Assembly (NCBI RefSeq): GCF_010894455.1
Contig: NZ_JAAIXY010000011.1
Location: 124,001-188,000 of the forward strand
Length of the DNA: 64,000 bases
Direction: 5' to 3'
From: Myxococcus eversor
GTDB lineage: Bacteria > Myxococcota > Myxococcia > Myxococcales > Myxococcaceae
The notes under the pieces are model-generated. The model searched no databases. It was not told the origin of the DNA and saw only the letters and a list, made by a program, of their open reading frames with translations. The position numbers were made by a program, and so were the translations under genes. Positions 1 through 32,877 of the stretch are shown one piece after another. The stretch's first letter is position 1. Every line of letters begins with the position of its first letter.

Positions 1-403
1 TGGAGACCAGCACCGCGAAGGCGGGCTGCTGGAACGCGCCGGCCACGGAGACGATGGCCGTCGTGACGTACGCGTGCCACGGGCGGAGCTGCCCCGTGAA
101 GAGCAGCACGGCCAGCACCAGCGTCGTCAGGCCGGCCGTCAAATCACTCAGCAGCAACACCCGCCGGAGCTTCCACCGGTCCACCAGCGCGCCCGTCACC
201 GGTCCCAGCAGGACACCCGGGAGCGCGGCGCACAGCATGATGAGCGCGAAGCGCGTCACGCCTCCCGTCGTCTGATACATCCAGACGCCCAGGGCGAAGC
301 TGGTCAGCGAGGAGCCCAGCAGGGACACCACCTGCCCCAACCAGAGGGCGAGGGCACGCCCGAGCGAGAAGTCAGGCGCGGGCGCCACCGTGGCCTGCGT
401 CAT
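1..403 (-). CDS. MFS transporter, N-terminal part (runs off window)
   Basis: Major facilitator superfamily permease, probably the exporter or self-resistance pump of the lipopeptide made by the upstream NRPS genes. The 134 visible codons begin MTQATVAPAPDFSLGRALAL and give hydrophobic segments near residues 15-40, 47-67 and 84-103. Between the second and third helices lies the MFS loop signature GALVDRWKLRRVLL (G-x-x-x-D-R-x-x-R-R), about residues 71-84. The ATG (complement of 401-403) overlaps the stop of the preceding NRPS gene in an ATGA arrangement, so the two are almost certainly translationally coupled. The rest of the gene lies outside the window, so drug-efflux subtype and substrate cannot be judged. 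Export of the peptide is an inference from operon position. Confidence 0.88.
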   Translation of the reverse strand, partial: MTQATVAPAPDFSLGRALALWLGQVVSLLGSSLTSFALGVWMYQTTGGVTRFALIMLCAALPGVLLGPVTGALVDRWKLRRVLLLSDLTAGLTTLVLAVLLFTGQLRPWHAYVTTAIVSVAGAFQQPAFAVLVS

Positions 404-3400
404 GAGCCACGCTCCGTGGACGTGTGCTCCAGGTGCCAGCGCACGCGCTCCGCGAGCTCGTCGACGTGTGGCGCGGCCAGCATCGTCATGTGGTCGCCCG
501 GGACGTCCTCGACGAGGACGGGGCGTGCCGCGTGGTGCTTCCAGCCCCAGGTGGCGTCCTCCTTGAAGTCGCCCGGCAGGACACCGTCCTCCTCGTGCCG
601 CTCCCTGGCCCGGAAGAGGGTGATGGGGGCGGGGCGCGCGTCCGCCGGAGGGATGTATGTGATTTCGTAGGCGCGCTTGTAGACCTGGATGAGGCCGCGC
701 ACCTGCTGGCTGTCCGCGTCGGGAGGCAAGAGGCCCCCTTGGACGAGCCGACCGGTGACGTGGGCCAATCGCTCCTCTGGGGAGAGCGGCCTGAGCGCCT
801 CGGCGGAGACTCCCAGGTCCACGCCATACAGGCGGCCCGCGACGCTGGCGACGGAGGCCATCCAGTCCGTGTCGTCGAGCGCGGGCGCGTCGGAGGCGGG
901 CTCCTCGTGCCTGGGCACGGGAGTGTTGAGGAGGCCCAGGAAGGCGACCTCCTCGCCGCGCGCCTGGAGCCGCCGCGCCATCTCGAAGGCCACCCAGCTC
1001 CCGAAGGAGTGGCCCAGCAGGTGGTAGGGGCCGTGCGGCCGCACCCGCTGGAGCGCCTGGACGTAGCACTCCGCCATCTCCTCGACGGAGGCGTGCGGCG
1101 GCTCCACGCCGTCCAGTCCCCGTGCCTGGAGTCCGTAGAGGGGCCGCGCCGTGCCCAGCCGCCGCGTCAGCTCCCGGAAGTAGAGGACGTTGCCGCCCGC
1201 GCCCGGCACGCAGAACAGCGGCGGTCCCTCGCCCCCGGCCTGGAGTGTCACCAATGGAGACCACGGGCTGTCGCCGTCTTGCTCAATCGCTCGCGCGAGC
1301 TGCTCCAGCGTGGGGCCCTGGAAGAGGACCGCCAGGGACGGAGCCTTGCCGAAGCGCTCGCGAATCCGAGCCACCAGCCGGACGGCGAGCAGGGAGTGTC
1401 CGCCCAAATCGAAGAAGCTGTCGCTCGCGCCGATGGGGCCTGTCCCCAGCAGCTCCTCGAAGAGCGCCGCGAGCTTCTGCTCGGTGTCTCCGCGCGGCGC
1501 GATGAAGCCCTCCGCCGCCTCGCGCCGGGAGTCTCCGGGCGGAGGCAGCGCCTTCCGGTCCACCTTGCCGTTGGGCGTGAGGGGGAAGGCGTCCAGGAGG
1601 ACGAAGGCCGAGGGCACCATGTACACGGGCAGGTGCTGGCGCACGTGCTGACGGAGCGCCTCCTCGCCCACCGCGTCCGGTGCCGTCAGCGTGAGGTACG
1701 CGACGAGCTGCCCTCGGACGAGCAGCTCCACGGCGCGCACGCTCGCGTGCTCCAGCAGCCTCGCCCTGATTTCATCCAGCTCGATGCGGTGGCCGCGCAG
1801 CTTCACCTGCGTGTCGTTGCGCCCGATGAACTCCAACGTGCCGTCCGCCGCGTGGCGCGCCAGGTCCCCCGTCCGGTACAGGCGCGCGCCGGGCTCCGCG
1901 CTGAAGGGATGCGGGATGAAGCGCTCGGCCGTGAGGCCCGGCTGCCCCTGGTAGCCTCGCGCCAGCCCCACGCCGCCGACGAACAGCTCCCCTGGCACTC
2001 CGATGGGCACGGGCTGCAGCGCCGCGTCCAGCAGGTACATCTCCGCGTTGGGGAAGGGGCGTCCAATCGGGACGGTCTGCTCGCTGGGGCTGGGCGTGAC
2101 GGACTCGAAGAAGGTGCTGTCGATGGTCGCTTCGCTGAGGCCGTACGAGCTCACCAGCCGCGTGTCCGGGCCGCACAGGCTTCGGAGCTGGGTGTACTCG
2201 CGCATGTCCCACGTATCCGAGCCGACGATGAGCAGCCGCATGAAGTCCAGCCGCTCTCCACGCTCCTGGAGGTGGGCCATCAGCAATCGGACCACCGCGG
2301 GCACGAACTCTCCGCAGTCCACGCGCTCTCGCACCATCAGCGCGTGCAGCCGCGCGGGCTCCAACAGCCACTCACGCGGGCAGAGCACGAGCGCCGCGCC
2401 CGAGCCGAGTGCCCGCGCGAGGTCCCCGCTGAAGACGTCGAAGGAGAAGCTCGCCATCTGCAGGTGGGCGCGCAGCGTGGGCAGCCGATAGTCGTGCTCC
2501 CACGCGAAGTAGGCATTCGCGAGAGCGCGATGGTCCACCATCACTCCCTTGGGCCGCCCCGTGGAGCCCGACGTGTAGACCACGTACGCGAGGTGCTCCG
2601 GTCCCGAGCCTCCCGTGGGGGCCGTGTCCGGGCGCCCCTCGATGGCGAGGGCGTCCTCGTCCAGGCTCACGATGGTGGGTCGTGGCGTGGGCAGCGTGTC
2701 GCGCAGCGTCCTCCGGGTGATGAGCAGCGCGGGCTGGCTGTCGGAGAGCATCAGCGCGGTGCGGTCCGGCGGATACGAAGGGTCCAGCGGGACGTAGGTG
2801 CCCCCGGCCTTGAGCACGGCGAGGACGGCCACCACCAGGTCGACGGAGCGCTCCAGGAAGATGCCCACGCGCTGCTCGGGGCCCACGCCCAGGGCGCGCA
2901 GATGGTGCGCGAGCTGGTTGGCGCGCCGGTCGAGCTGGGCATACGTGAGACGGCGCTCCGGGTCGACGACGGCGAGGGCGTCTGGCGTCCTGGCGGCGTG
3001 GGCCGCGATGAGGTGATGCAGACAGGTGCCGGCCGGGACGTCCAGGCGTGCCTCGTTCCAGCCGTGCAGCACTTGCTGTCGCTCTTCCGGCGGGAGCAGT
3101 GGCAGCGTGGCGAGGGGCTCGTCGGGCCTGGCGGCGATGCTGGCCAGCAGCGTCTGGAAGTGCGCCACCATGCGGTCGGCGGTGGTGGCGTCGAAGAGGT
3201 CCCGGTTGTACTCCCACGTGCCCTGCAGTCCGTCCGCTTCCTCGGCGAGCCAGAGCGTGAGGTCGAACTGGGCGAACGACTCTCCCGGGACGGAGTAGGA
3301 CTCCAGCCGGAGTGCCCCCACCGTGGCCTCGGCCTCGGGGGTGTTCTGCAGCACCAGCATGGCCTGGAAGAAGGGCGGGAAGCTGGTGTCGCGCGTGGGG

Positions 3401-4546
3401 GCCAGCTCCTCCAGCAGCTTCTCGAACGGGACGTCCTGGTGCGCGTACGCCCCCAGCGTCACGTCCACCACTCGCCGCAGCAGCTCGCGGAAGCGCGGGT
3501 TGCCGGACATGTCCGTGCGCATGACGAGGGTGTTGAGGAAGAAGCCGATGAGCGGCTCGATGGCGGCGCGGTTGCGGTTGGCGATGTACGTGCCGACGCT
3601 GAGCCGGGGCTCGCGCGTGTAGCGGTGGAGCTGGGCCTGGAACGCGGCCAGCAGCACCATGTACAGCGAGGCCTTCTCCTGGCCCGCGAGCGCGCGCAGG
3701 CGCCGCGTCACCTCCGGGCTCACGACGAAGGCCCGCTTCCCACCCGCGAACGTGCGCACGCGGGGACGCGGCCTGTCCGTGGGAAGCTTCAACGGAGCGT
3801 CGCCGTCCGTGAGCTGTCGGCGCCAGTAGCCGAGCTGGGCATCCAGCACGTCCCCCTGGAGCCAGCGCCGCTGCCACACCGCGAAGTCGGCGTACTGGAT
3901 GGGCAGCTCCGTCAACGGAGAGGGCTGTCCGCGCGAGAAGGCGTCGTAGAGGGCCGCCAGCTCACGCACGAGCACGCCGGTGGACCACCCGTCGGAGATG
4001 ATGTGGTGCATCACCAGCAACAGGACGTGGTCCTCCGGGCCCAGGCGCACCAGCGTGGTCGCCAGCAGCGGCCCCCTCGCCAGGTCGAAGGACCGGCCCG
4101 CCTCCCGCAGCGCCAGCTCCCGGCAGCGCGCTTCACGCTCGTCGGCGGGCAGGGACGTCAGGTCCACCACGGGGACTTCGAGCGCCAGACGCGGGACGAC
4201 GTGCTGCGTGGGTTCACCGTCCTCGGACGCGAAGGTGGTCCGCAGCACCTCGTGTCGGTGGACGACCTCGGCGAGGCCGCGCGTCAGCGCCTCCACCTGG
4301 AGCGGGCCGCGCAGGCGCACGAACTCGGGGATGTTGTAGGCCGGCGTCCCGGGCTCGAACTGGTCCAGGAACCAGAGCCGACGCTGGGGATAGGAGAGCG
4401 GCAGCGGCCCGGTGCGTGGAGCGCGGAGGATGGGGGGCGGGCCCTGCGTCGGCGTGGGCGCCGCGGTCTTCTGTTGCTCGCGCAGCTTCTTCAGCACGAG
4501 CTCGCGCTTCTCCGGGGACAAGCTGGCCAGCCGCTTCTGGAGCGCG

Positions 4547-4554
<8 letters not shown>
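400..4554 (-). CDS. Terminal NRPS module C-A-PCP-TE, ornithine-type code
   Basis: 1384-aa final module of the assembly line. A condensation domain at about residues 48-480 has HHIISDG at 183-189. The adenylation domain spans about 500-1000 (YTSGSTGRPKG core). The carrier site is LGGHS with Ser1054. A type I thioesterase spans about 1125-1380, with nucleophile Ser1183 in GHSFG and catalytic His1355 in GDHMT. Hand alignment to the GrsA pocket gives D-V-G-E-I-G-S-I-D(-K), the code listed for ornithine in gramicidin S and tyrocidine. The thioesterase should release the chain, probably by cyclisation onto the beta-amino group as in iturins (inference). The ATG overlaps the 3' end of the four-module gene by 8 bases. 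The A-domain sequence closely resembles that of module 4 of the preceding protein, suggesting module duplication. Function class is certain; substrate is a prediction. Confidence 0.95.
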
Positions 4555-18796
<14,242 letters not shown>

Positions 18797-18836
18797 TGGG
18801 TGCGAAGAGGTGGAGGCGGCCCCGGGAGGGGCGGCG

Positions 18837-21800
18837 CTAATCGTGTTGGGAGGGGTCCGGCAGGTTGAGCTCGGCGCGCGAGTCCGCCTGGACTCGACGC
18901 GCCTGTCGGGGACGGGCGACCAGCGGTGGCGGCGCGGGACGCGACTCGCTGGGGCGAAGCGTCTCCAGGTGCTTCGCCATGGCGCCCAGGGTGGGGTGCT
19001 CGAAGAGGACGCGCAGGGCCACGTTCACGCGCCAGGCCTCCTGGATGCGCGCGAGCGCCTGCACGGCCTTCATCGAGTGGCCGCCCAGGGCGAAGAAGTG
19101 GTCATCCACGCCGACGCGCTCCACCCCCAGCACCTCGCGCCAGATGGTCGCGAGGCGTTCTTCGTCGGGGGTGCGCGGCGCCACGTACGTGGCCGAGGCG
19201 CGCGAGTCCATCGCGGGCGCAGGCAGCGCCTTGCGGTCCAGCTTGTTGTTCGCCGTGCGAGGGAACGACGCCAGCACCACGAAGTGCGCGGGCAGCATGT
19301 AGGCGGGGAGATGGGCGCGCAGGTGCTCGCGCAGCGCCGCTTCGTCGAGTGCGGTGCCGGGGACGGGCTGGACGTAGGCGACCAGCGCCGGGTCGCCGGC
19401 CGGTCCCCACGGGCGCACGGCAGACTCCGCCACACCGGGGTAGCGGGCCAACTGCGCCTCGATGTCACCCAGCTCGACGCGATGGCCGCGCAGCTTCACC
19501 TGTCCGTCGCCGCGCCCCAGGAACTCCAGCGAGCCGTCGGCCCGCCGCCGCGCCAGGTCTCCAGTGCGGTAGAGGCGTGCGCCTGGATGCCCCGAGTGCG
19601 GGTCCGGCACGAAGCTCGCGGCGGTGAGGTCCGGGCGATTCAGATAGCCACGGGCCACGCCCAGTCCACCCAGGTACAGCGAACCCACCACGCCGGGAGG
19701 CACGGGGTGCAGCCACGCATCCAGCACGTGCGCCTGGGTGTTGGCGATGGGGCGGCCGAGTGTAATCGGGCCGCCGGTCTCCAGCCGCGACACGGTGGAC
19801 CACACGGTGGTCTCCGTGGGGCCGTACATGTTCCACAGCTCCGCGCAGCGCGCGCGCAGGGGGGCGAGCAGCTCGGAGGGCAGGGCCTCGCCGCCGCACA
19901 AGAGCTTCAGGGTGGGGAGGCCGGACCAGCCCAGCGACAACAGCATCCGCCAGGTGGAGGGCGTGGCCTGCATCATCGTGGCGCCGCTCGCCGTCAGCAG
20001 CGGCATCAACCGCGTGCCATCCACCGCCTCCTCCTGGCTGGCGATGACCACGCACCCGCCCACGCTCAGGGGAAGGAACAGCTCCAGCACGGAGATGTCG
20101 AAGGCGACCGTCGTCACCGCGAGCAGCGTGTCCCGCTCGGTCATCCCGGGCTTGTGCCCCATCGACGTCAGGAAGTTGGCCACGGCCTCATGCGGGACGG
20201 CCACGCCTTTGGGGAGGCCCGTGGAGCCGGAGGTGTAGAGCACGTACGCGAGGTCGGAGCCCCCGGTGGAAGTGAGCGCCGCGGCGGACGGGGCCTGGGC
20301 GGCGTCGGAGGACCGGAGCGTGCGCCCGCGCCAGTCGGGGATGAGGGCCGCGAGCTCCGGCTCCGTCACCAGCGCCGCGACGCCGCTGTCCTCGAGGATG
20401 TGCATCAGCCGGGGCGCGGGGTACATCGGGTCGAGCGGGACGTAGGCCGCTCCCGACTTGAGGATGCCGAGCAGTCCGACGAGCAGCTCCAGCCCTCGCT
20501 CCAGGAAGAGTCCCACCCGCTGCCCTGGACTCACGCCCAGGTGCCGCAGGTGGTTCGCCAGTTGATTGGCCCGCGCATCCAGTTGGGCGTAGGTGAGAGC
20601 GGAGGCGCCGAAGCGGGCGGCGGTGGCATCCGGGCGACGCGTGGCCTGCGCTTCGAAGAGCGCATGCACGGTGCGTGGGCCCGGGAGCTCGGAGTCCGTG
20701 GCGTTCCACTCGCGCAGCAGCGAGGACTGCTCCGTCTCGGACAGCAGGGCCAGCCGTGAGACAGCGCGCTCCGGAGTGTTTGCCACCTGCTCCAGCAGGC
20801 CCAGGAAGTGGGCGGTCATCCGCGCCGAGGTCGCCTCGTCGAACAGGTCGCTGTTGTAGGTCAGCTCGCTGACGAGGCCCCGTTCGGTCTCCGCCAACGA
20901 CAGCGCGAGGTCGAACTGCGAAGTGCCGCTCTCCACCTCCATCAACTCCAGCGTCAGCCCGGGCAGGGCCAGCGGGGCCGGAGGCGTGTTCTGGAGGGTG
21001 AGAAGGACCTGGAACAGGGGCGGGTGGCTCAGGTCTCGCGCGGGCTGGAGCGCCTCGACGAGCTGTTCGAGGGGCACCTCCTGGTGGGAGTAGGCGGCGA
21101 GCGTGTCACGGCGCACGTCACGGAGCAGCGCCGAGAAGGTCGGGTCTCCCTCCAGGGACACGCGCAGCGGGAGCGTGTTGGCGAAGAGGCCGATGAGCGC
21201 TTCCGTCCGAGGGGGCCGGTTGGCGATGGGGGCACCCACCACCACGTCGCGCTGGCCGCTGTAGCGGGAGAGCAGCACGCCGAACGCGGTCAGCAGCGTC
21301 ATGAACAACGTCGCCTCCGTGTCGCGGGCGCGTTGCTTGAGTCGGGTGACGAGGGCAGGGGGCACGGTGAAGCGCCGCGTGGCACCGAGGTATCGCTGCG
21401 CCGCGGGCCTGGGGCGGTCCGTGGGCAGCTCGAGCAGCTCCGGAGCTCCGGCCAGGTGCGCCCGCCACCACTCGACGTGCGGCTTCAACGTCCCATCCTC
21501 CGCGCGCCGCCGCTGCCAGTGCGCGTAGTCCGCGTACTGGATGGGCAGTGCCGGCAGGGTGGCTTCTCCACCAGAGGTGAGGGCCTGGTAGTGCGCGGCC
21601 AGCTCCTGCATCAACACGCTCAGGGACCAGCCGTCGCTGGCGATGTGGTGCAGCGTGAGCAGCAGCACGTGCTCATGCGCTTCCAGTCGGAGCAGTCGCA
21701 CGCGCAGCGGCGAGTCCTTCGTCAGGTCGAACGGCGCGCGCGCCTCCTCGGCCGCGAGGCGCTGGACCTCCGCGCGCCGTGCCTCGGCGGGCAGCGACGC

Positions 21801-22286
21801 CAGGTCCACCCGAATCATCGTCACGTCGACGCCGGGCAGGATGTGCTGGACGGGCCGCCCCCCATCCATGGCATAGCGCGTCCGCAGCACGTCGTGGCGC
21901 TGGACGATGGCGCTCAGCGCGCGCGTCAGGGCGTCGGCGTCCAGCGTGCCCGCGAGGCGCAGGGCCGCGGGCATGGTGTATGCGCCGGACGGCCCCTCGA
22001 GCTGCTCCAGGAACCACAGCCGCTGCTGGCTCGAGGAGAGCGGTGGCGCCTCGCCATGCGGTCGGGGAGCGATGGACTCCGCGACGCCGCGCGCGGCCAC
22101 CGCGGCTTGCTGGAGGAACGCGATGACCTCCTCCTTGCGCGACTTCAGCTCGGCCTGCAGCTCCGGAGTCAGCGCCCCCGGTGGAGCGCTGAAGCGCAGG
22201 CGTTCCCCCTCCAGCCACAGCTTGATATCCAGGCCGCGCAGGTGGCGCATCACTTCGTCGATGGGGCGTGGAGTGGGGAGGCTCAC
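18837..22286 (-). CDS. NRPS module with TubC-type docking domain, glycine code
   Basis: 1149-aa docking-C-A-PCP protein. Residues 1-55 form a TubC_N-type docking domain (pattern LRGLDIKLWLEGERLRFSAP, then a Leu-rich helix), which accepts the chain from the preceding PKS-NRPS. That protein ends in an acidic tail (HEEGEL), the usual partner. The C domain (about 75-500) has HHIASDG from His213. The A domain (about 525-1015) gives pocket code DILQLGMVW, a glycine code. The carrier site is GGHS with Ser1071. The frame is open much further upstream, but that part is a shadow of the neighbouring gene. I place the start at GTG 22286-22284, which overlaps the upstream TGA stop (GTGA) and puts the docking domain at the N-terminus. 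A 40-base gap separates it from the next NRPS gene. Confidence 0.93.
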   Translation of the reverse strand: MSLPTPRPIDEVMRHLRGLDIKLWLEGERLRFSAPPGALTPELQAELKSRKEEVIAFLQQAAVAARGVAESIAPRPHGEAPPLSSSQQRLWFLEQLEGPSGAYTMPAALRLAGTLDADALTRALSAIVQRHDVLRTRYAMDGGRPVQHILPGVDVTMIRVDLASLPAEARRAEVQRLAAEEARAPFDLTKDSPLRVRLLRLEAHEHVLLLTLHHIASDGWSLSVLMQELAAHYQALTSGGEATLPALPIQYADYAHWQRRRAEDGTLKPHVEWWRAHLAGAPELLELPTDRPRPAAQRYLGATRRFTVPPALVTRLKQRARDTEATLFMTLLTAFGVLLSRYSGQRDVVVGAPIANRPPRTEALIGLFANTLPLRVSLEGDPTFSALLRDVRRDTLAAYSHQEVPLEQLVEALQPARDLSHPPLFQVLLTLQNTPPAPLALPGLTLELMEVESGTSQFDLALSLAETERGLVSELTYNSDLFDEATSARMTAHFLGLLEQVANTPERAVSRLALLSETEQSSLLREWNATDSELPGPRTVHALFEAQATRRPDATAARFGASALTYAQLDARANQLANHLRHLGVSPGQRVGLFLERGLELLVGLLGILKSGAAYVPLDPMYPAPRLMHILEDSGVAALVTEPELAALIPDWRGRTLRSSDAAQAPSAAALTSTGGSDLAYVLYTSGSTGLPKGVAVPHEAVANFLTSMGHKPGMTERDTLLAVTTVAFDISVLELFLPLSVGGCVVIASQEEAVDGTRLMPLLTASGATMMQATPSTWRMLLSLGWSGLPTLKLLCGGEALPSELLAPLRARCAELWNMYGPTETTVWSTVSRLETGGPITLGRPIANTQAHVLDAWLHPVPPGVVGSLYLGGLGVARGYLNRPDLTAASFVPDPHSGHPGARLYRTGDLARRRADGSLEFLGRGDGQVKLRGHRVELGDIEAQLARYPGVAESAVRPWGPAGDPALVAYVQPVPGTALDEAALREHLRAHLPAYMLPAHFVVLASFPRTANNKLDRKALPAPAMDSRASATYVAPRTPDEERLATIWREVLGVERVGVDDHFFALGGHSMKAVQALARIQEAWRVNVALRVLFEHPTLGAMAKHLETLRPSESRPAPPPLVARPRQARRVQADSRAELNLPDPSQHD

Positions 22287-25200
22287 AGCTCGCCCTCCTC
22301 GTGCGCGGTGTCGCCTGTTCGCGGGCCCGTGGCCCAGAGGAGCGTGTCCAGGTGCTCCGCCAGGTCGGCGAGCGTCGCTGCCTTGAGGAGTCGCTCCAGG
22401 GACACCTCCACCTGAAGTGTCTCCCGCAGTCGCGAGGCCACCTGGGTGGCCAGCAGCGAGTCTCCGCCCAATTCGAAGAAGTCGTCGTGGATGCCCACAC
22501 GCGGAATGCGCAGGGCCTTCATCCACATCTCCGCGAGCGTGGACTCGGTGGGCGTGCGTGGCGCGACGAAGGGGCGCAGGGTCGCGTTCGCGGCCGGGTC
22601 GGGGGCTGGGAGCGCGTGGCGGTCCACCTTGCCACCCGGAGAGATGGGCAGGGCGTCCATGAGGACGAAGAAGGCGGGCACCATGTAGTCCGGCAACGTC
22701 TCCAGGAGGAACCTGCGCAGGTCCGTGGGCGTGACGCTCGCTGATGCGGTGGGCACGACGTAGGCGACCAGTCGCTTGTCGGAGCCACCGCTTCCCTCCA
22801 CCGGCTCGTGGTGGACAGTGACGGCCACCGCCCGCAGGGCCGGATGTCGGCTGAGAGCGGACTCGATTTCCCCCAGCTCGACACGGAAGCCGCGCACCTT
22901 GACCTGATGGTCCGTGCGGCCCAGGAACTCCAGGGCGCCGTCCGGCAGGTAGCGCACCACGTCCCCCGTCTTGTAGAGGCGCGCGTGAGGTGAGCTGGAG
23001 AACGGGTCCTCGACGAAGCGCTGCGCGGTCAGCTCGGGCCGGTGAAGGTAGCCGAGCGCGAGCAACTCGCCGCCAATGTGGAGTTCGCCCGCCACGCCGA
23101 TGGGGACAGGTCCCCCATGCCGGTCGAGCACGTGGAAGGCGCGGTTGGAGAGCGGTCGGCCGATGGGGACGCGCGCGGAAGGCTTCTGCCCGTTGGAAGC
23201 AGGAGGCACCTCGTGGGTCGTCGCGGTGATGAGCGTCTCCGTGGGACCGTAGGCGTTGAGGAGCCGCACCGAGCCCAGTGCACCGCGCTGCCACTGCTCC
23301 AACACGGCCGCCAGCACCGCGTCGCCACCCACGATGACCAGGCGCAGGTGGTGGCCCGCGAAGTCGGGCGGAGACTCGTCCCAGCGCTGGGCGAGCTGAC
23401 GCCAGTAGGCCGTCGGGAAGTTCACCACCGTGAGCCGGTCCTCGATGAGGTGCCGCGCCATCTCCTCGGGCGTCCATACCGTGGGGCCGCGCAGCACCAA
23501 TGTCGCGCCGACCATGAACGTCGGGAGGATCTGCTCCAGAGAGGCATCGAAGCTGAACGACGCGAACTGGAGGATGCGGTCGTGCTCCGTGTGCCGGTAG
23601 CGCGGGATGACGTCGTGGCAGTGGGTGACGAACGCGCCATGCCCGACGACGACGCCCTTGGGCTCACCCGTGGAGCCGGACGTGTAGATGACGTAGGCCG
23701 GCGTGGTGGCCTGCGCGAGGTTCTCCAGGTCCCCCTGGGGCAGTGTCGCCAGCAAGGCCGCGTCGGTGTCCAGGCGGACGAGCTTCGTGTCCAGGGCCGG
23801 CAGCCGCTCGGAGAGCGCGCCCTGCGTCACGACCACGGCCGCGCGGGAGTCCTCGACGAGGAAGCGCAGGCGCTCCGTGGGGTAGGCCGGGTCCAGCGGC
23901 ACGAACACGCCACCCGCCTTGAGGATGCCGAGCAGCGTGACGAGCATCTCCGGCGAGCGGTCCAGGAGCGCGCCCACCAGGACGCCGGGCCCGACGCCGA
24001 GCGCGCGCAGGTGATGCGCGAGCTGGTTGGCCTGCTGGTTGAGGGCCGCGTAGGTGAGGTGCCGCCCCTCGAACTCCACCGCTGTCTTCTCGGGCCGCGC
24101 CGCTGCCTGCTGCTCGAAGAGCTGGTGGACCAGGTGCTCTCGCGGGTACGCGGCGCGGTTCCGCTCGTTCCAGGTGAAGGTGAGCTGGTAGCGCTCCGCG
24201 GCGGTGAGCACCGGCAGTTGGTGAAGGAGGCGCTGGGGGGCGGCCACCAGCCCTTGCAGCAGTGCTCGGAAGCCGCGCGCGAAGCGGGCGACGCTCGCGG
24301 GCTCGAACAGGTCGGTGTTGTAGTCGAAGTCCAGCACCAGCCCGTCCTCGACATCGAGCACGTTCAGGCTCAAGTCGAAGGCGGCGAACGCGACAGGCTG
24401 GGAGTGGAAGCTCGCCTTCAGGCCCCCCATGTCGCGCAGGGCGAGCGGGCGCTCCAGGTTGAACGTCACGCCGACGAGCGTCGTGTGGCTGGTGGTTCGA
24501 GGCAGCGCCAGCCGGTTGATCAACTGGGCGAAGGGGTAGTCCTGGTGCTCGTAGGCGGAGAGGAGCGTCTGCTTGAGGGCCCGGAGGTACTCCGGGAAGG
24601 GCTCGTCACCGCGCGCGTGGCTGGAGATGGGCAGCAGGTGTGAGCAATAGCCGACGAGCCCCTCGGCGCCCTCCAACCCGCGCCCGGAGGTGGGGATGCC
24701 CACGAGGAGCTCGGCCTGTCCCGTCAGCCGGTGGAGGAAGGAGGTGTATGCGGAGAGCAGCAGCATGAAGGGCGTGGCCTGCTGCCGCTGACCCAGCTCC
24801 CGCAGCGCCTGACTGACGGGGCGCTCCAGGCGAACCGTCTCCCGCGCGCCTCGGAAGCGTCGCGACGCGGGGTGGAGGAAGTCAGTGGGCAGCTCGATGG
24901 CGGGGATCCGCTCCACGCGCTGCTCCAGCCAGTAGCGCTCGTGGACCGCGAGCGCCCCCGTGGACTCCTGCGTCTTGAGCCAGTGGACGTGGTCGCTGGA
25001 CTGCTTCACCGCGGGCAGGTCCGGAGTGGCTCCCGTCACGAACGCCGAATAGGCCGCCGCCAGCTCGTGGACGATGACGCCCAGGGACCAGCCATCCACG
25101 ACGACGTGGTGGGTGGTCAGCACCAGCAGGTGCTCCGATGCGTCCAGCTTGAGCAGATGAGCGCGGAACAGGGGGCCCTGCCGCAGGTTGAACGCGGTGG

Positions 25201-28200
25201 TGCTCTCCTTCGCGTACCAGGCGGCCTGGGAGTCGACCCTGGTGGCGGGGGACAGCGCGGACACGTCGAGCACCGGCAGGGCCATGCGGAGCTCGGGCAG
25301 GATGTGCTGCCGTTCGCCGACCGCGTCGATGGTGGTTCTCAGGGCTTCATGGCGGTCCACGACGTATTGCAACGCGCGCCGCAGAGAGTCTTCGCGCAGC
25401 GCCCCCTCCAGGCGGAGGGTCATTGACAGGTTGTAGGCGATGGAGCCGCCCTCGTTCGCCGTGGCGAGGATCCACAGCTGTCGCTGCGCCTCCGTCAGCG
25501 GCAGGGTCCGCTCCGACGCGGTGGGGACGGGGAGGCCGGGGCCCGGCTGGGGCTGGGGCCAGAAGCCACCCGCTTGCATCTCCGCGACGCTGTCCGCCAC
25601 CGCGTGGACGATGGCATCGAGCTCCGCGTCGCCATGCGCGGTGGAGAGCATGCAGGTGCGCCCCTCCCAGATGTAGATGCCGCGGTCGCGCAGGTGGCAG
25701 AAGAAGAGGTCCATCTCCAGCGGCTGGAAGAGGTAGCTGGAGTTGCCGGCCACGTTGAAGCGCATGACCGAGCCTCCGTGCACCATCTCCACGGGGGCCT
25801 GGGCGCGCTGGAAGACCTCGTTGATGCGCTCCGCCAGCCGGGCAGCGCGCTGGTTGAGGTTCTCTTGGAGGGAGGGGCCTTCGTTCTTCAGATGCGTGAG
25901 GGTGGCGACCATCGTCGCCATGGTCAGCGGGTGCTTGCAGAACGTCCCGGCGGCGAAGGTCGTCTCGACGGCCGGATAGGAGTCATCGCCGTAGTTCCAG
26001 TCCCCGCCGTCGATGCGGTCCACGAAGCCGCCTCGGTCCGCCACGAGGCCGATGGGCATTCCTCCGCCCACGACTTTTCCGTACGTCACCAGGTCGGCCT
26101 CGATGCCCAGCCACGCCTGGGCGCCGCCGGGATGGAGGCGGAAGCCGGTGATGATTTCATCGAACATGAGGGGCACCCCCGCCGCGCGGGTCATCTCGCG
26201 CAGGCTCTGGAGGAATGCCCGGGGCTGGAGGTTGGGGCGGCGGCTCTGCAGCGGCTCCACCACCACCACGGCGAGCTCGCCCATGCGCTCGCGGATGATG
26301 TCGAGCGAGCGCTCCTCGCCATACGGCAGCACGATGACGTCGTCCGCGACCTGCTGCGTGACGCCCGCGGCCATGGGGAGCGACTGAGGCACCCCGTCGA
26401 CCATCCGCCCGACGACCAGCGTCCCGTCGGAGTGGCCGTGGTAGGAGCCGGTGAACATCACGACCTTCGAGCGCCCCGTGGCCGCGCGGGCCAGCCGGAG
26501 CGCCGTCATCACCGCCTCCGTGCCGGAGTTGCAGAAGGTGACGCGCTTCATCCCGGTGAGCTCGCAGAGCAGCTCCGCCGCGCGGCCCGCGAGGTCCGAC
26601 TGCGGTCCGACCTCCATGCCCTGCTCCAGGCGCTCGCGCAGCGCGTCCACCAGGAAGGGCGGCTGGTGCCCGAACAGGTGCACGCCGAAGCCCATGGAGA
26701 GGTCGATGAACTCGTTGCCGTCCACGTCCCAGAAGCGCGCGTCGCGCGAGCGGGTGCTGACGATGGGGTAGCAGACCTCCTTGAGCTCCGCGCGGAAGTT
26801 CATCAGCCAGCGCACGTCGCTCCACTGGGGGCGGTGTGTGCTGGCGTGCTGCTTCGAGCTTCGGGTCCGCCGCGTGTGGCGCTCCACCAGCGTGTCCACG
26901 TGGTTCCGCTGCGTGGGCGTCAACACCCTGTCGGCCGTGCCCTTCAGGGAGCCCGAGGCGAAGGGCGATGCACCCTTGGTCGGCGGCGCGGACGGGAGCG
27001 AGGGGGCGGGTGCCGTGCGAGCAGTGGGCGTGACACCGGGCGCCGCGAGACTCGCGGACGTGGCAGTGGGGGCCACGTCCGCGGCGCCGGAGGGCATGGC
27101 GGCGACGGCCCCGGCTTTTCCTCCCAGCAGGGCGAGCTGCTGGCTCATGAGCTGAAGCTGCAGCTTGACGATCTGCTCCAGGCCCGCGTCGCCGGGCGAG
27201 AGCGTGGCGGCGGTGGGCGTGGCGAGAGGCTCCGAGGCGGGCGGGAGCGTCGCGAGCGCGGGCGTGGCGTCGGCGGGAACGGTCTGGTCCAGGTAGCGGG
27301 CCAGGGCGTCCAGCGTCGTCAGCTCCTCGAAGACCTGGCGCATGGTCAGCGTGACGCCGAACCGTTTCTCCACCGCCCGAGCCGCGTCCATCAGGATGAC
27401 CGAGTCCGCGCCAAGCTCCAGGAAGGAGGCGTGCGCGTCCATGCGCTCGGGAGGCATCTGGAGCAGTCGGGCCAGCAGGGCGCGGAGCTCGATCAGGAAG
27501 CGCTCCTGGCGGTGCACGGTGGAGGGAGCGGTCATGGTGGCCTGCGAGGACTGAGGAGAGGGAGTGGCGTCCAGCCAGTAGCGCTGGCGCTCGAAGGGAT
27601 GGGTCGGGAGCAGCACCCGGGGAGCGTCGTGGCCCGCGTGAAGCGAGCGAAGATCCACCGGGACGCCTCGGACGTAGAGGGCGCCCAGGGTGCCCAGGAG
27701 CGTCTCCCATGCATCGCGCTGCTTTCTCAGGCTGGGGAGCCATTCGGCGCCGCCCTCGGGGAGGCAGCGCTTCGCCATGCCCAGCAGCGTGTCGTGCGGT
27801 CCCAGTTCGACGAACAGCGAGGGGCCCTTTGCGTCCAGGGCCGCGCGTTGGATGCTTTGAAAGAACTGGACGGGCTCGCGCACGTGGCGGCGCCACTCCC
27901 GCGCGGTAGGCGCCGCGGTGAGGGGCGCTCCGGTGAGGTTGGAGATGAGCGTCAATCGCGGCGGCTGGAACGCGACGCCGGAAGCGGCCTGCTCGAACGC
28001 GTCGAGCATGGGTTCCATCAGTGGCGAGTGAAACGCATGCGAGACCTGGAGGGGGCGGGCTTCCACGCCTCGTGCCTCCAGCGCCTGGACCACGCGCTCC
28101 ACCGAGGTCCGCTCTCCGGAGATGACGACGTGGCGGGGCCCGTTGATGGCGGCCACCTCCACCGCGCGCTCGGACGCCAGCGCTGCGCGGACCGTTGCCT

Positions 28201-30538
28201 CGTCCGCCATGAGGGCGACCATGGTCCCCTCGGGTGGCAGGGCCTGGATGAGGCGGCCACGAAGCGCGAGCAAGCGCAGCGCGTCCTCGAGCCCCAGGAC
28301 TCCGGCCGCATGCGCGGCGGCGTACTCACCCACGCTGTGCCCGAGGACGGCGTTCGGCTTCACGCCCCACGAACCCCACAGCTCCGTCAGGGCGTACGCC
28401 ACCGCGAACAGGGCGGGCTGGGTGTAGCGCGTCTGGTGAATCCGAGCTTCGTCGTCACCGGGCCCTGGGAAGAGGAGCGACTTCAGCGACACGTCGAGGT
28501 GCGGACGAAGCAGCGCGTCGCAGCGCTCGATGGCCTCGCGGAAGACGGGGGCGCTTTCATGGAGCGCGCGCGCCATGCCGGGGTACTGCGCGCCCTGGCC
28601 AGGGAAGAGGAAGGTGACGTGCGGAGGGGCCTCGCGCCGCGCCTCGCCCTGGTGCAGGCCAAGGACGTCCTTCCCCTGGAGAAACGCGCCGAGCCGCTCC
28701 GACAACTCCTGGGACGAGCCCGCCACCACGGCGAGCCGGTGCGGCCAGTGGTCTCGCCCCGTCGCGGCCGTGAAGCACAGCGCCTCCAGCGAGGGCGCGT
28801 CCGAAGAGGCGAGCAGCTCCCGATAGTGTTCGACGAGGACGCGAAGGGCCGGCGCGGTCCGGGCAGACAGCGTCAACAGATGATGGGTGCGCGCCGGAGG
28901 GCTCGTGGCCGCATGAGCACGCGCGGGAGATTCGCCGAGGATGACGTGGGCATTGGTCCCCCCGAAACCGAAGGCACTCACGCCCGCGTACCGCGCTCCC
29001 AATGCTTGGGGCCAGGGCTCGCGCCGCGTCGGAATCTGGAAGGCGGGCTGCCGCAGGTGGATATGCGGATTGAGCTGACGGAAGTGGGCCTGGGGGGGAA
29101 TCTCCCCGTGCCGCAGCGTCAGGACCGCCTTCACGAGCCCGGCGATGCCAGCGGCTGCTTCCAGGTGGCCGATGCTGCTCTTCGCCGAGCCGATGTAGCA
29201 GGGGAGCGACGTGTCACGCCCCTGGGCCAGCACCGCCTGGAGCGCGTCGACCTCCATGGGGTCGCCCAGCGGCGTCCCCGTACCGTGGGCCTCGACGTAG
29301 CCGATGCTCGCGGGGGACAGCCGCGCCTGTCGCAGGGCCTGACGAATGACGTCCTGCTGCGCGGCGCCGCTGGGCGCGGTGAGGCCATTGCTGGCGCCGT
29401 CATGGTTGACCGCCGAGCCGTGGAGGACGGCGAGGATGGGGTCGCCCGCGGCGAGCGCGTCCTTCAGTCGCTTGAGCACGACGACGCCGCAGCCCTCGGA
29501 GCGGACATAGCCATCCGCGGAAGCATCGAAGGTCTTGCATCGGCCATCGCCCGCCATCATCCCCGCCTGGGAGAAGGCGATGGTGAGCTCCGGAGTCAGG
29601 ATGGCATTCACACCGCCGACCAGGGCCAGGTCGCACTCCTGGGAGCGGAGGCTCTGGCGGGCCAGGTGCACGGCGACGAGCGAGGAGGAGCACGCGGTGT
29701 CCACCGCCATGCTCGGCCCCCGCAGGCCCAGCAGGTACGAGAGGCGGTTGGCGGCGATGCTGTGGGCGTTGCCCGTGCCCGCGTACGCATCCAGCAGGGC
29801 GGGGTCACTGAACTGCTGCCGCGAGTAGTCCTGGGTGCTGATGCCCACGAACACGCCGGTGCGGCTGCCCTGGAGGGCCTTGGGCGCGTGGCCACCGCGC
29901 TCCAGCGCCTCCCAGGCGACCTCCAGCAGCAGCCGCTGCTGCGGGTCCATCCGGTGCGCCTCGCGAGGGGAGATGCCGAAGAACAGCGGATCGAACGCGT
30001 CAATCCCCTCGACGAAGCCGCCCCAGCGCGTGTTCATCGTTCCGGGTGCCCCCGGCCCGGCACCGTGGAAGCGCCGCGAGTCCCAGCGGCTCGGGGGCAC
30101 CTCCGTTATCGCGTCACCCCCTCGTTGCAGCAGGGCCCAGTACGCCTCGGGTGAAGAGGCACCCGGGAAGCGGCAGGCCACCGCGGTGATGGCGATGGCG
30201 TCGTCCAGGTCCACGGAGGACTCCGCCTCGGACGCCTCGGGGACGGGAGGCGGCGCGAGCAGTCCGGCCAGATGCCGGCTCAGGGCATCGATGGTCGGGT
30301 GCTCCCACAAGGCGGTGGGGGAGACGTCCTGCCCGAGCCAGTCCGCCAGCTCCCCCGTGAGGAACACCGCCTCCTTGGAGGTGAGGCCGTATGTGACGAA
30401 GGGTTCATCACGCTTCACCTCCGAGGGCGGTACACCCGCCTCCTCGGCCACGGCGGCGACGAGCCACGCGACGAGCTGCTCGAACGTGCGAGGAGGGTGG
30501 GAGGACGGCGGCGAAGGTGAGCGAGCGAAAGTTGTCAA
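22283..30538 (-). CDS. Hybrid PKS-aminotransferase-NRPS (ACP-KS-AT-ACP-AMT-C-A-PCP)
   Basis: 2751-aa first protein of the line. An N-terminal ACP (about 17-92, Ser54 in YGLTSKEAV) is followed by a ketosynthase (Cys283 in DTACSSS, then EAHGTGT and SIGHLE). The acyltransferase has Ser735 in GHSVGEY and a HAFH motif of malonyl-specific ATs. A second ACP (Ser1046, GADS) and an Ala/Pro-rich linker lead to a class III, GSA-type aminotransferase (about 1210-1650; PLP lysine 1488 in TYGKVVGGG). Then come C (HHVVVDG from 1810), A (about 2135-2640) and PCP (Ser2694, GGDS). There is no KR, DH or ER, so the beta-keto group is left for transamination, as in mycosubtilin/iturin synthases. The A-domain code reads about DAENIGAIT, which I cannot assign. 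No acyl ligase is fused at the front. The start is TTG 30538, with no clear SD, so it is the weakest point. Confidence 0.95.
25565..26825 (-). other. Integrated GSA-type aminotransferase domain (beta-amination)
   Basis: Domain-level entry. About 420 residues of class III PLP aminotransferase, related to glutamate-1-semialdehyde aminomutases. It carries [18 protein letters not shown], the FDEIITGFR stretch with its PLP-contacting Asp, and TYGKVVGGG with the Schiff-base lysine (residue 1488 of the protein). It sits between the second ACP and the condensation domain, the same place as in iturin-type synthases, and is expected to convert the ACP-bound 3-oxoacyl chain to a 3-aminoacyl chain. Confidence 0.93.
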
Positions 30539-30610: not shown

Positions 30611-31579
30611 ATGCGTGGCGGGTGCGATTTGATGGCGTTTGGCGAAGTCGAGTGCTGGTCCGAGGATGGCCGGCTGGACAGCGTGGTGGTGTTCCGGCCC
30701 GCCGAGCTGGACGTCGCGTCAGAGGAGGAGGCGGTCGCGGTGGGGTTTGCCCGCGTCGTGACGCGGGCCGCCGCCGAGGATGCCTTTGGCCGGCTGCGCC
30801 AGACGCTCGCGTCATTTGGCTGCAAGGCCATCGACCTGGAGGAGTTCCTGTCGCCGGCGGACCGGGTGGTCAGCAACACCACGGTCAACCGGGTGTTCGT
30901 CCGGGACACGGCGGTGGTGCTGGGGGCGCGGCTGGTCCGGGGTGCGGCGGCGTTTCCGCCGAGGGTGGCCGAGTTCGACGTGGCGCACGGAGCGCTGTCA
31001 CGGCTGATGGGGCGGCACGACGGGAACGCGGAGTGGGCGGCCGCGGCACGCGTCGAGTTCGGGGACGTCTTCCTGCTGGGGCAGGGGCGGTTGCTCGTCA
31101 ACGTGGGGTTGCGAAGCGACCCTCGGTTCGTGAGGGACTTCGTGGACCTGGCCTGGGGCGCGGGGTTCGAGGAGGTGGCGGTCGTCCGCATCCCCGACAG
31201 CCTGGGCATCATCCACCTGGACCTGGCCTTCAACGTGCTCGGGACGGAGGCCGTCGTGGCGCGAGCGTTCCTGCGCCACTGTCCGCTCCACGTGTACCCA
31301 CGTGGGGAGCCGCCGCGCTGGGAGTCGTTCGAGGCGTACTTCGTTCAGCGGGGCCGGCGCGTGCTGGCGTTCGAGCCGGGGAGCACGCATCCCTTCCTGT
31401 CGAACTTCATCAGCCTGGAGCCGCGGTTGTTGCTCGCCTCGGAAGGGGCGGCGCCGCACCTGCGCAACCTGGCGCGGGGCCTCGGGCTGGAGGTGGTGGG
31501 CGTCGACATCGACGCGCTCGAGAGCGGCAACGGGAGCGTGCGCTGTCTGACGATGCCGTTGCGGCGCGGCGTGGCGTGA
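30611..31579 (+). CDS. Arginine deiminase / amidinotransferase-fold protein
   Basis: 322 aa. Belongs to the pentein fold of arginine deiminases, dimethylarginine hydrolases and amidinotransferases. Seen in sequence: NRVFVRDTAVVLG (compare the N-x-x-F-x-R-D block of arginine deiminases), IHLDLAFNVLG with the catalytic His-x-Asp, and GNGSVRCLTMPLRRG at the C-terminus with the nucleophilic Cys in an R-C-x-x-x-P context. It is shorter than classic arginine deiminases (about 400 aa) and lacks room for their helical insertion. Hydrolysis of Arg would give citrulline; amidino transfer would give ornithine. It is transcribed divergently from an NRPS operon with two ornithine-type modules, so precursor supply or tailoring is likely (inference). 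ATG 30632, preceded by GGCGGGTG, is an alternative and perhaps better start than 30611. General arginine catabolism cannot be excluded. Confidence 0.8.
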   Translation: MRGGCDLMAFGEVECWSEDGRLDSVVVFRPAELDVASEEEAVAVGFARVVTRAAAEDAFGRLRQTLASFGCKAIDLEEFLSPADRVVSNTTVNRVFVRDTAVVLGARLVRGAAAFPPRVAEFDVAHGALSRLMGRHDGNAEWAAAARVEFGDVFLLGQGRLLVNVGLRSDPRFVRDFVDLAWGAGFEEVAVVRIPDSLGIIHLDLAFNVLGTEAVVARAFLRHCPLHVYPRGEPPRWESFEAYFVQRGRRVLAFEPGSTHPFLSNFISLEPRLLLASEGAAPHLRNLARGLGLEVVGVDIDALESGNGSVRCLTMPLRRGVA

Positions 31580-31682: not shown

Positions 31683-32678
31683 CTACGGGTGAGGCTGCGC
31701 CGTCGGAGCAGGAGCGGCGGGCTTGTTCTCCGCGCCTTCAATCTTCAACTGCTCCAGCGCCGCTTCCTTCACTTCAATCTTCGCCTGCGCCTTCAGCCCG
31801 TCGATGAATCCCTCCATCGCCTTGGACCGGCGCTCACCCAGCAGGCGCGCCTCGATGCGCGGCTTCGCCTGCTCGAAGGTCTGGTCCATCCCGACCTGCC
31901 GGCCCTGCAGCTTCACCAGGTGGAAGCCCTTGTCGGTCTCCACGACCTGGCCAATCTCCGACGACGACTTCAGACCGAACGCCGCCTCCGCCAAGGCCGC
32001 GCCCCACGCCACGGTCAGCTCATCCCGGCTGCGGAAGCCCAGGTCTCCACCTGCGGGCTTGGTGGCCACGTCCTGTGACTGCTGCGCCGCCGCCAGCTCG
32101 AAGGCGCTCTTCGTGGGGCCCGCTTCCTTCGCCTTCAGCTCCGCCAGCAGCTTCACCACCGTCGCCCGGGCCTGCGTGCGCTTCGCGGCGTCATCCTTTG
32201 GCGCCTCCAGGAAGATGTGGCTCACGCGGACGCGCTCGGGCTTCAAGAACTCGGAGAGGTGCTCGTCGTAGTACTTGCGCACCTCCGGCTCGGCGAGGGT
32301 TCCGGCGGCGGCCTCCTGCTGCTTGCGCAGCAGCTTCTGCACCATCACCTTCTCCAGCGTCGCCTGAATCTCGGGGTCCTTCTCCAGCCCCTGCTTCCGA
32401 GCCTCCTGCACCAGCAGCTCGAAGCGGATGAGGTTGTCGAGGAACTCCTTCTTCTTCTCCAACGTGGCGTAGCGGCTGCGCACGAACAGCGGCTGCTCGT
32501 CCAACTTCGCCTTCATCTCCTGGGTCGTCACGCTGCGGTCATTGATGACCGCGACGACGGGGCTCGAATCCTTGGGCCCAGCCTCCGGTGGACGAGGACT
32601 CCCACCGTTGCAGGCGGAGAGGGCGAGGGCGGCGACGACGGCGGACAGGACTCGGGTTCGGACGGAGAACATATGCAT
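31683..32678 (-). CDS. Parvulin-type peptidyl-prolyl isomerase lipoprotein
   Basis: 331 aa. A short signal peptide ends in lipobox L-S-A-C with Cys23, so the protein is probably lipid-anchored. Residues 38-145 form a SurA/PrsA-like helical chaperone region (VVAVINDRSVTTQEM, then long charged helices). Residues about 149-265 are the parvulin domain, with RVSHIFLEA, GGDLGFRSRDEL and the closing TDKGFHLVKLQGR. The Ala/Pro-rich tail ends at 331. I start at ATG 32678 (MHMF), or ATG 32672, because the frame further upstream lacks a signal peptide directly after the start; GAGG lies about 12 bases upstream. Likely role: folding of secreted proteins, either general or for the giant exported proteins nearby. 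It is divergent from the next PPIase gene. Confidence 0.88.
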   Translation of the reverse strand: MHMFSVRTRVLSAVVAALALSACNGGSPRPPEAGPKDSSPVVAVINDRSVTTQEMKAKLDEQPLFVRSRYATLEKKKEFLDNLIRFELLVQEARKQGLEKDPEIQATLEKVMVQKLLRKQQEAAAGTLAEPEVRKYYDEHLSEFLKPERVRVSHIFLEAPKDDAAKRTQARATVVKLLAELKAKEAGPTKSAFELAAAQQSQDVATKPAGGDLGFRSRDELTVAWGAALAEAAFGLKSSSEIGQVVETDKGFHLVKLQGRQVGMDQTFEQAKPRIEARLLGERRSKAMEGFIDGLKAQAKIEVKEAALEQLKIEGAENKPAAPAPTAQPHP

Positions 32679-32877
32679 GGGTGGAATCAACCTCGGGAGC
32701 TTCACTTGGGGTGTGAACGCGCCGCGTTTTCGAGCCGGGACGGCGGTCACCGCGTGAAGCGACAACCAAAAAGTGGGCCTGAATCGTATATCCAACATGG
32801 CGCAAGGTGCGAATCCCGTGGTTCCTCGGACCAGGCTCGACGGGCAGCAGGGAAAGTCTCCTCTAGGAACGATACGG
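32679..32877. promoter_or_regulatory. Divergent intergenic region between two PPIase genes
   Basis: 199 bases holding the promoters of two divergently transcribed PPIase genes. An AT-richer stretch (about 32764-32800) lies nearer the plus-strand gene. A short palindrome, GCGGT-C-ACCGC at 32743-32753, is the only symmetric element seen. No confident -35/-10 boxes. Confidence 0.35.

What the first reader, a model, noticed from the sequence alone, without database searches (positions are those of the whole stretch)
1..30538. Iturin-like beta-amino lipopeptide assembly line in a myxobacterium, with an unfamiliar predicted heptapeptide
Module order is ACP-KS-AT-ACP-AMT followed by seven C-A-PCP modules and one TE: a beta-amino acyl unit plus seven residues, the same count as iturins. 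The codes give X-Gly-Thr-(Asn-like)-D-(Phe/Tyr-like)-Orn-Orn, quite unlike iturin A (Asn-Tyr-Asn-Gln-Pro-Asn-Ser). Two adjacent ornithines would make a cationic, probably membrane-active cyclic lipopeptide. Myxobacterial cystomanamides also contain a 3-amino fatty acid, so they are the first comparison; I do not recall a described product matching this code.
Basis: partly seen in the sequence, partly recalled or inferred. Interest (0 to 1): 0.8.

Follow-up and report, generated by a model that had tools for sequence, protein, structure and literature searches.

The report
Orphan myxobacterial beta-amino lipoheptapeptide gene cluster
A soil predator bacterium and its relatives carry a well-preserved set of genes that should build a fatty-acid-capped chain of seven amino acids, probably with one dehydrated residue and two positively charged ornithines, whose actual product we could not find described.

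Summary
Three things were missed. (1) The fatty acyl-AMP ligase that should load the first ACP lies just outside the window, behind an MFS exporter. (2) The C domain after the Thr module is of the dehydrating type (nearest solved relatives McyA and AmbE), so residue 3 is probably dehydrobutyrine. (3) A divergent arginine-deiminase-like gene (30611-31579) belongs to the cluster: it and the aminotransferase occur in the same 21 genomes. The unread first A domain is closest to Arg-activating ApnA A1, so X is probably Arg-like, perhaps citrulline made by the deiminase. Gene order and codes are kept in three genera down to about 65% identity, so the line is under selection. The start works like iturin and puwainaphycin, but the cluster is neither: separate FAAL, AT in cis, different peptide. 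A 2018 paper reports an antiSMASH 'puwainaphycin' prediction in all six Myxococcus species it compared, probably this cluster. No product was found in the library searched. A good orphan, ordinary in kind.

The parts
30611..31579 (+). arginine-deiminase-like gene, divergent from the synthetase genes
   Evidence: Pfam ADI; same 21 genomes as the AMT region; arginine deiminase fold
22283..30538 (-). gene A: ACP-KS-AT-ACP-AMT-C-A-PCP
   Evidence: intact motifs
30260..30481 (-). first ACP (about residues 20-93), to be loaded by the separate FAAL
   Evidence: third PP-binding stretch; YGLTSK motif; limits approximate
25778..26770 (-). in-line class-III aminotransferase (AMT)
   Evidence: Lys motif TYGKVVGGG
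22628..24118 (-). first A domain, code DAENIGAITK, nearest solved single domain ApnA A1
18837..22280 (-). gene B: TubC docking-C-A(Gly)-PCP
4547..18796 (-). gene C: C-A(Thr)-PCP, C-A(Asn)-PCP, C-A(Phe/Tyr)-PCP-E, C-A(Orn)-PCP
14252..15544 (-). condensation domain of the dehydrating (McyA/AmbE) type after the Thr module
   Evidence: controls
7877..9223 (-). epimerisation domain after the aromatic module (limits approximate)
   Evidence: fifth Condensation-family stretch; HHLVVDAVSW motif
400..4554 (-). gene D: C-A(Orn)-PCP-TE
1..403 (-). start of an MFS exporter gene; it continues outside the window (to C21 123030) and is followed by the stand-alone FAAL gene at C21 121279-123033

Best explanation
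This is an intact orphan assembly line for a beta-amino lipoheptapeptide. A stand-alone FAAL activates a free fatty acid and loads the first ACP (inferred). KS and the in-cis AT add one malonyl unit on the second ACP and, as no ketoreductase is present, the AMT turns the beta-keto group into an amine, giving a 3-amino fatty acyl starter (domains shown; chemistry inferred from iturin and puwainaphycin logic). Seven modules add X-Gly-Thr-Asn-(Phe/Tyr)-Orn-Orn. The C domain that receives the Thr-bearing chain is of the dehydrating type and probably makes dehydrobutyrine before joining Asn. The E domain and the next C domain give a D-aromatic at position 5. The TE releases the chain, most likely by attack of the beta-amine (macrolactam, inferred). 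X is probably arginine-like. The co-inherited deiminase-like enzyme probably turns arginine into citrulline, as substrate of module 1 or on the peptide (inferred). The MFS protein exports the product (inferred). Component odds: beta-amino lipoheptapeptide 0.9; Gly, Asn, Orn, Orn 0.85; Dhb 0.7; X Arg-like 0.6 (citrulline 0.35); cyclic 0.6.
For: Domain order and intact motifs. Codes identical or conservatively changed in 8 loci at gene A identities down to about 66% and in 4 more outside Myxococcus as far as the stretches reach. Order ADI | A-B-C-D-MFS-FAAL complete in 9 genomes, own included. Codes DATKVGEVGK and DFWNIGMVHK are printed with the predictions Asn and Thr in PMC3547906 (passage). 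C domain after Thr: McyA 327 and AmbE 176 bits against 139 for the next chain; the C domain of the first Orn module prefers McyB (351; McyA 150), that of the aromatic module Txo1 (353; McyA 71). A1: ApnA A1 at 430 bits is the best single-domain match, but only 12th (329 bits) for the Gly domain and 10th (346 bits) for the last Orn domain. ApnA code DVEDIGAIEK, found with Arg only, agrees at 7 of 10 positions (PMC5311044 section 15). ADI-like gene: in the same 21 genome handles as the AMT region, the only PF02274 match in the own genome, arginine deiminase fold at Z 27.1 against about 20 to 22 for DDAH, ArgZ/AgrE and amidinotransferases.
Against: No product is known, so every residue is a prediction. 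E239, N278 and T331 of A1 also occur in the cyanopeptolin code DVENAGVVTK, whose position ends as Ahp, so X could be something else (PMC2533009, passages). Of 14 non-orthologous McyA-type C domains read in the genus (of 25 listed), 13 follow Val-type codes and 1 a Ser code, so this subtype does not mark Ser/Thr dehydration alone; and the first His of HHxxxDG is Cys here in all 16 orthologs read. The FAAL scores below the NCBIfam cut-offs, and the deiminase far below the ArcA cut-off (42.5 against 489.1 bits). The deiminase may serve some other need. The TE sequence does not tell cyclisation from hydrolysis.
Confidence: 0.75

Rival explanations
1. The plain reading of the first reader: the chain keeps Thr, X is Arg, Lys or another residue used as such, and the deiminase-like gene acts elsewhere; the product is a cationic lipopeptide without dehydration.
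For: Thr code is canonical; McyA-type C domains in the genus mostly follow Val codes; Cys replaces the first His of the C motif; ApnA A1 relatives take Arg, also Tyr and Lys.
Against: Nearest solved relatives of the C domain are McyA and AmbE by a wide margin over controls; the deiminase-like gene is found only with the cluster.
Confidence: 0.25
2. The deiminase-like enzyme is an arginine dihydrolase or similar that feeds ornithine to modules 6 and 7, not citrulline to module 1.
For: Two Orn modules; ArgZ and AgrE share the fold (Z 20.7 and below).
Against: Arginine deiminases rank first by about 5 Z units and in Foldseek; ornithine is made by ordinary arginine metabolism (general knowledge).
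Confidence: 0.2
3. The cluster makes a product already described under another name, perhaps in a subscription journal, so it is not an orphan.
For: The cluster is common in a well-studied genus (16 of 27 genomes) and was probably seen by antiSMASH as 'puwainaphycin' in 2018 (PMC6306037, passage); only open-access papers were searched and MIBiG is not on hand.
Against: Eight paper searches by product or code turned up no product with this order.
Confidence: 0.2
4. The TE hydrolyses the chain and the product is a linear lipopeptide.
For: Cystomanamides, also started by a 3-amino acyl unit, are linear (PMC9581180, passages); TE relatives are mixed.
Against: Iturin-type lines with the same start cyclise through the beta-amine (recalled).
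Confidence: 0.35

Closest known systems
Iturin / mycosubtilin / bacillomycin synthetases
   Same: FAAL-started chain, one malonyl extension, in-line aminotransferase giving a beta-amino fatty acid, seven residues, one TE (iturin side recalled; FAAL role in PMC11837247, passages)
   Different: FAAL is a separate gene at the end of the unit; AT in cis (iturins use a separate malonyl transferase: recalled); other peptide code; a dehydrating-type C domain and a deiminase-like gene
Puwainaphycin / minutissamide clusters of cyanobacteria
   Same: FAAL start and beta-amino fatty acid, Dhb in the peptide (recalled); probably the antiSMASH name given to this cluster (PMC6306037, passage)
   Different: Seven modules instead of about ten (recalled), Orn-Orn, deiminase-like gene, no oxygenase domain among the Pfam hits of gene A
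Cystomanamide cluster of Cystobacter fuscus
   Same: Myxobacterial, 3-amino fatty acyl start, Asn and aromatic residues
   Different: Five modules with an FkbH domain, Asn-Asn-Phe-GA-Tyr, linear, glycosylated variants (PMC9581180, passages)
McyA (microcystin) and AmbE condensation domains
   Same: Nearest solved relatives of the C domain after the Thr module
   Different: First His of HHxxxDG is Cys here; activity untested
Anabaenopeptin synthetase ApnA, domain A1
   Same: Nearest single-domain solved relative of the first A domain; codes agree at 7 of 10
   Different: N278 and T331 here, where Arg-only ApnA codes have D or S at 278 and E at 331
Arginine deiminase
   Same: Fold (Z 27.1, rmsd 3.3, 309 aligned); residues aligned with the catalytic Glu, His, Asp and Cys
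   Different: About 90 residues shorter, 16% identical, far below the NCBIfam arcA cut-off

Membership tests
Beta-amino lipopeptide synthetase (general kind) | KS, AT and in-line class-III aminotransferase before the first C domain | tested here: met
Beta-amino lipopeptide synthetase (general kind) | A fatty acyl-AMP ligase with the cluster | tested here: met
   stand-alone FAAL behind the MFS gene in 9 of 9 clusters read in full; loading of the ACP not testable here
Iturin family | Acyl ligase fused to the N terminus of the first synthetase (recalled) | tested here: not met
   gene A begins with an ACP; FAAL is a separate gene
Iturin family | Malonyl transferase acting in trans (recalled) | tested here: not met
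   AT in cis with GHSVGE and HAFH motifs
Iturin family | Asn-Tyr-Asn-... heptapeptide | tested here: not met
   codes
Cystomanamide | Five modules with an FkbH domain | tested here: not met
   seven A domains and no FkbH-type hit in Pfam; cluster as described in PMC9581180
Puwainaphycin/minutissamide | About ten residues (recalled) | tested here: not met
   seven modules; no puwainaphycin sequence was compared
Dehydrating (modAA) condensation domain | Closest to McyA/AmbE-type C domains | tested here: met
   with controls 51 and 52; nearest solved relatives only, no tree was built
Dehydrating (modAA) condensation domain | Removes water from the beta-hydroxy residue of the donor | not testable with these tools
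   the donor module has the Thr code
Arginine deiminase | Fold and catalytic residues | tested here: met
   Z 27.1; Glu, His, Asp and Cys aligned and invariant in 16 rows; a fifth, the Asp of FVRD, is invariant too but was matched from recall
Arginine deiminase | NCBIfam arcA equivalog score | tested here: not met
   42.5 bits against a cut-off of 489.1; so an ADI-like enzyme, not ArcA

The most novel reading that the evidence does not exclude
The cluster makes cyclo[3-amino-acyl-Cit-Gly-Dhb-Asn-D-(Phe/Tyr)-Orn-Orn]. A dedicated, cluster-only arginine deiminase makes the citrulline, and the first A domain is an arginine pocket whose two extra positions (278 and 331) have become neutral (Asn, Thr) to take uncharged citrulline; or the deiminase acts on the bound Arg residue. 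It would be an old shared lipopeptide of Myxococcaceae in which a substrate enzyme and an A-domain pocket changed together.
Probability: 0.3. Interest if true: 0.6.

Novelty: new member of a known kind. Interest (0 to 1): 0.48.

Why it matters
It is a complete, conserved and testable orphan in a well-studied genus of predatory bacteria: the aminotransferase region is in 16 of 27 Myxococcus genomes and 5 of 69 other family genomes searched, with codes nearly unchanged where read. Predicted masses and the gene set (deiminase, dehydrating-type C domain, two Orn modules) make the product easy to look for by LC-MS. If the deiminase supplies citrulline, it would be a clean case of an A-domain pocket changed together with its substrate enzyme.

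Tried and rejected
Ornithine supply: an arginine dihydrolase (ArgZ/AgrE) was attractive because of the two Orn modules. The fold comparison puts arginine deiminases first (Z 25 to 27) and ArgZ/AgrE lower (about 20.5), level with amidinotransferases. That lowers the idea but does not exclude it.

A test whether McyA-type C domains follow Ser/Thr codes did not support such a rule. Outside Myxococcus only 2 of 192 C-type domains were of this type, one after a Ser code and one after a Tyr-type code. Inside the genus 41 matches were listed, 16 of them orthologs; 14 of the 25 others were read, 13 after Val-type codes and 1 after a Ser code (labels Val, Ser and Tyr recalled).

The first structure model of the deiminase was poor (mean pLDDT 57.7, 10 rows) and was not used; the second (76.8, 16 rows) was. 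No paper in the library prints DAENIGAI or DACTIAAV, DACTVAAI; one search found 'DAENIG' in two unrelated papers only. One search was wasted by a regular expression that matched nothing.

MIBiG and antiSMASH are not on hand. No search was made for arginine deiminases in other NRPS clusters, so no novelty is claimed for that pairing. The E domain was not compared with solved structures.

Full report
What was checked. The window is C21:124001-188000 of an 11.4 Mb assembly in 124 contigs. The closest named relative of gene A in the genome collection is in Myxococcus qinghaiensis QH3KD-4-1, 95% in the best segment. The GrsA ruler gave DAWTIAAICK, as expected from recall.

Extent. The four synthetase genes are packed head to tail on the minus strand and continue past window base 1 into an MFS exporter and a stand-alone fatty acyl-AMP ligase (the ligase scores below the NCBIfam cut-offs but its best single-function models are FAALs). 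On the other side a divergent gene of 322 residues belongs to the arginine deiminase superfamily.

Conservation. In 27 genus genomes the aminotransferase region is found in 16 and the deiminase-like gene in the same 16; 11 have neither. In 96 family genomes the aminotransferase region passes E <= 1e-200 in 21. In 195 phylum genomes the deiminase-like gene passes E <= 1e-15 in 21, the same handles; the family handles were first given out, so I take it that all 96 were among the 195. Five of the 21 lie in two other genera. Stretches were fetched for four of these five, and all four have the synthetase beside the gene in the same order (G111 was not fetched, G115 and G119 end inside gene C). Codes there differ at single positions only, for example DATKIGEVGK in G113 and G115 and DAATIAAVCK in G131. 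The full set ADI | A-B-C-D-MFS-FAAL was seen in nine genomes: seven, own included, and two. In L009 the stretch ends inside gene C.

Residue 3. The C domain that accepts the Thr-bearing chain scores McyA 327 bits and AmbE 176 bits, then McyB 139, among solved chains. The C domain of the first Orn module prefers McyB and PvdL, with McyA at 150 and AmbE at 144; that of the aromatic module prefers Txo1 and Txo2, with AmbE at 85 and McyA at 71. A review describes AmbE-C2 and AlbB domains as dehydrating C domains, with Thr turned into Dhb in the AlbB case (PMC10880069, passages). That McyA's C domain dehydrates a Ser-derived residue is recalled. Against this: most other domains of this type that were read in the genus follow Val-type codes, and the first His of the motif is Cys in all 16 orthologs read.

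Residue 1. The best single-domain solved relative of the A domain is ApnA A1 at 430 bits, ahead of 405 for 8xjz; linear gramicidin synthetase chains score higher because two domains are summed, 316 and 301. ApnA A1 is 12th for the Gly domain (329 bits) and 10th for the last Orn domain (346 bits). ApnA codes found with Arg only are DVEDIGAIEK, DVEDIGAVEK and DVESIGAIEK (PMC5311044, section 15); DAENIGAITK agrees with the first at 7 of 10. Relatives with Arg plus Tyr or Lys exist in the same table. The cyanopeptolin code DVENAGVVTK shares E239, N278 and T331 and sits at the Ahp position (PMC2533009, passages), which speaks against a firm call. Among the 247 A domains of the loci fetched by then, the nearest outside Myxococcus has code DTENIGAAVK at 48%.

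The deiminase. It is the only PF02274 match in the own genome. Residues aligned with the Glu, His, Asp and Cys of arginine deiminase are invariant in 10 and in 16 rows; titles of mutant structures name D166, H278, D280 and C406. A model of mean pLDDT 76.8 matches arginine deiminases first in Foldseek (E 1.5e-17) and in VIA-align (Z 27.1, rmsd 3.3, 309 aligned), ahead of nnhA, DDAH, ArgZ/AgrE and amidinotransferases at about Z 20 to 22. It is far below the arcA cut-off. Citrulline formation is inferred.

Known or not. Cystomanamide differs in module count and composition (PMC9581180, passages). A 2018 pan-genome paper lists puwainaphycin among antiSMASH core predictions in all six Myxococcus species compared (PMC6306037, passage); I think it is this cluster, but the passage gives no coordinates. 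A FAAL review lists iturin A, mycosubtilin and puwainaphycin as examples and other compounds for Myxococcota (PMC11837247, passages). A survey of myxobacterial clusters was seen in passages only (PMC6616573) and did not settle the point. Eight product-directed or code-directed searches turned up no product with this order.

Judgement. A real, intact and selected orphan cluster. Its kind is known; the probable dehydration, the Arg-like first position, the separate acyl ligase and the co-inherited deiminase are the additions made here.

Noticed in passing
window 34742-49960 (+): A 5072-residue open frame with Glucodextran_B, Ig-like and RHS-repeat matches, a giant surface or secreted protein (first 4998 residues scanned).
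   Followed up: no
window 51610-63999 (+), open at the window end: A second giant frame (4130 residues and more) with many Big_7 and TIG domains.
   Followed up: no
window 31683-32924 (-) and 33786-34736 (+): Two neighbouring peptidyl-prolyl isomerase (PpiC/SurA-type) genes; both also match beside the cluster in L005.
   Followed up: no
L122-L135, 14 loci from other Myxococcus clusters: McyA-type condensation domains mostly follow Val-type A codes (13 of 14, one Ser), which hints at dehydro-valine-type residues in other myxobacterial peptides.
   Followed up: partly
L059:9842-19885: A Myxococcaceae MAG has a 46% relative of gene A with the FAAL in the same open frame, the fused mycosubtilin-like layout.
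   Followed up: no
L009: A record titled 'Comamonas sp. KCTC 72670' carries this cluster with the same or nearly the same codes; the record name looks wrong.
   Followed up: no
G031:C840:78-1391: A second aminotransferase relative (50%) in one Myxococcus genome, perhaps from another beta-amino lipopeptide cluster.
   Followed up: no
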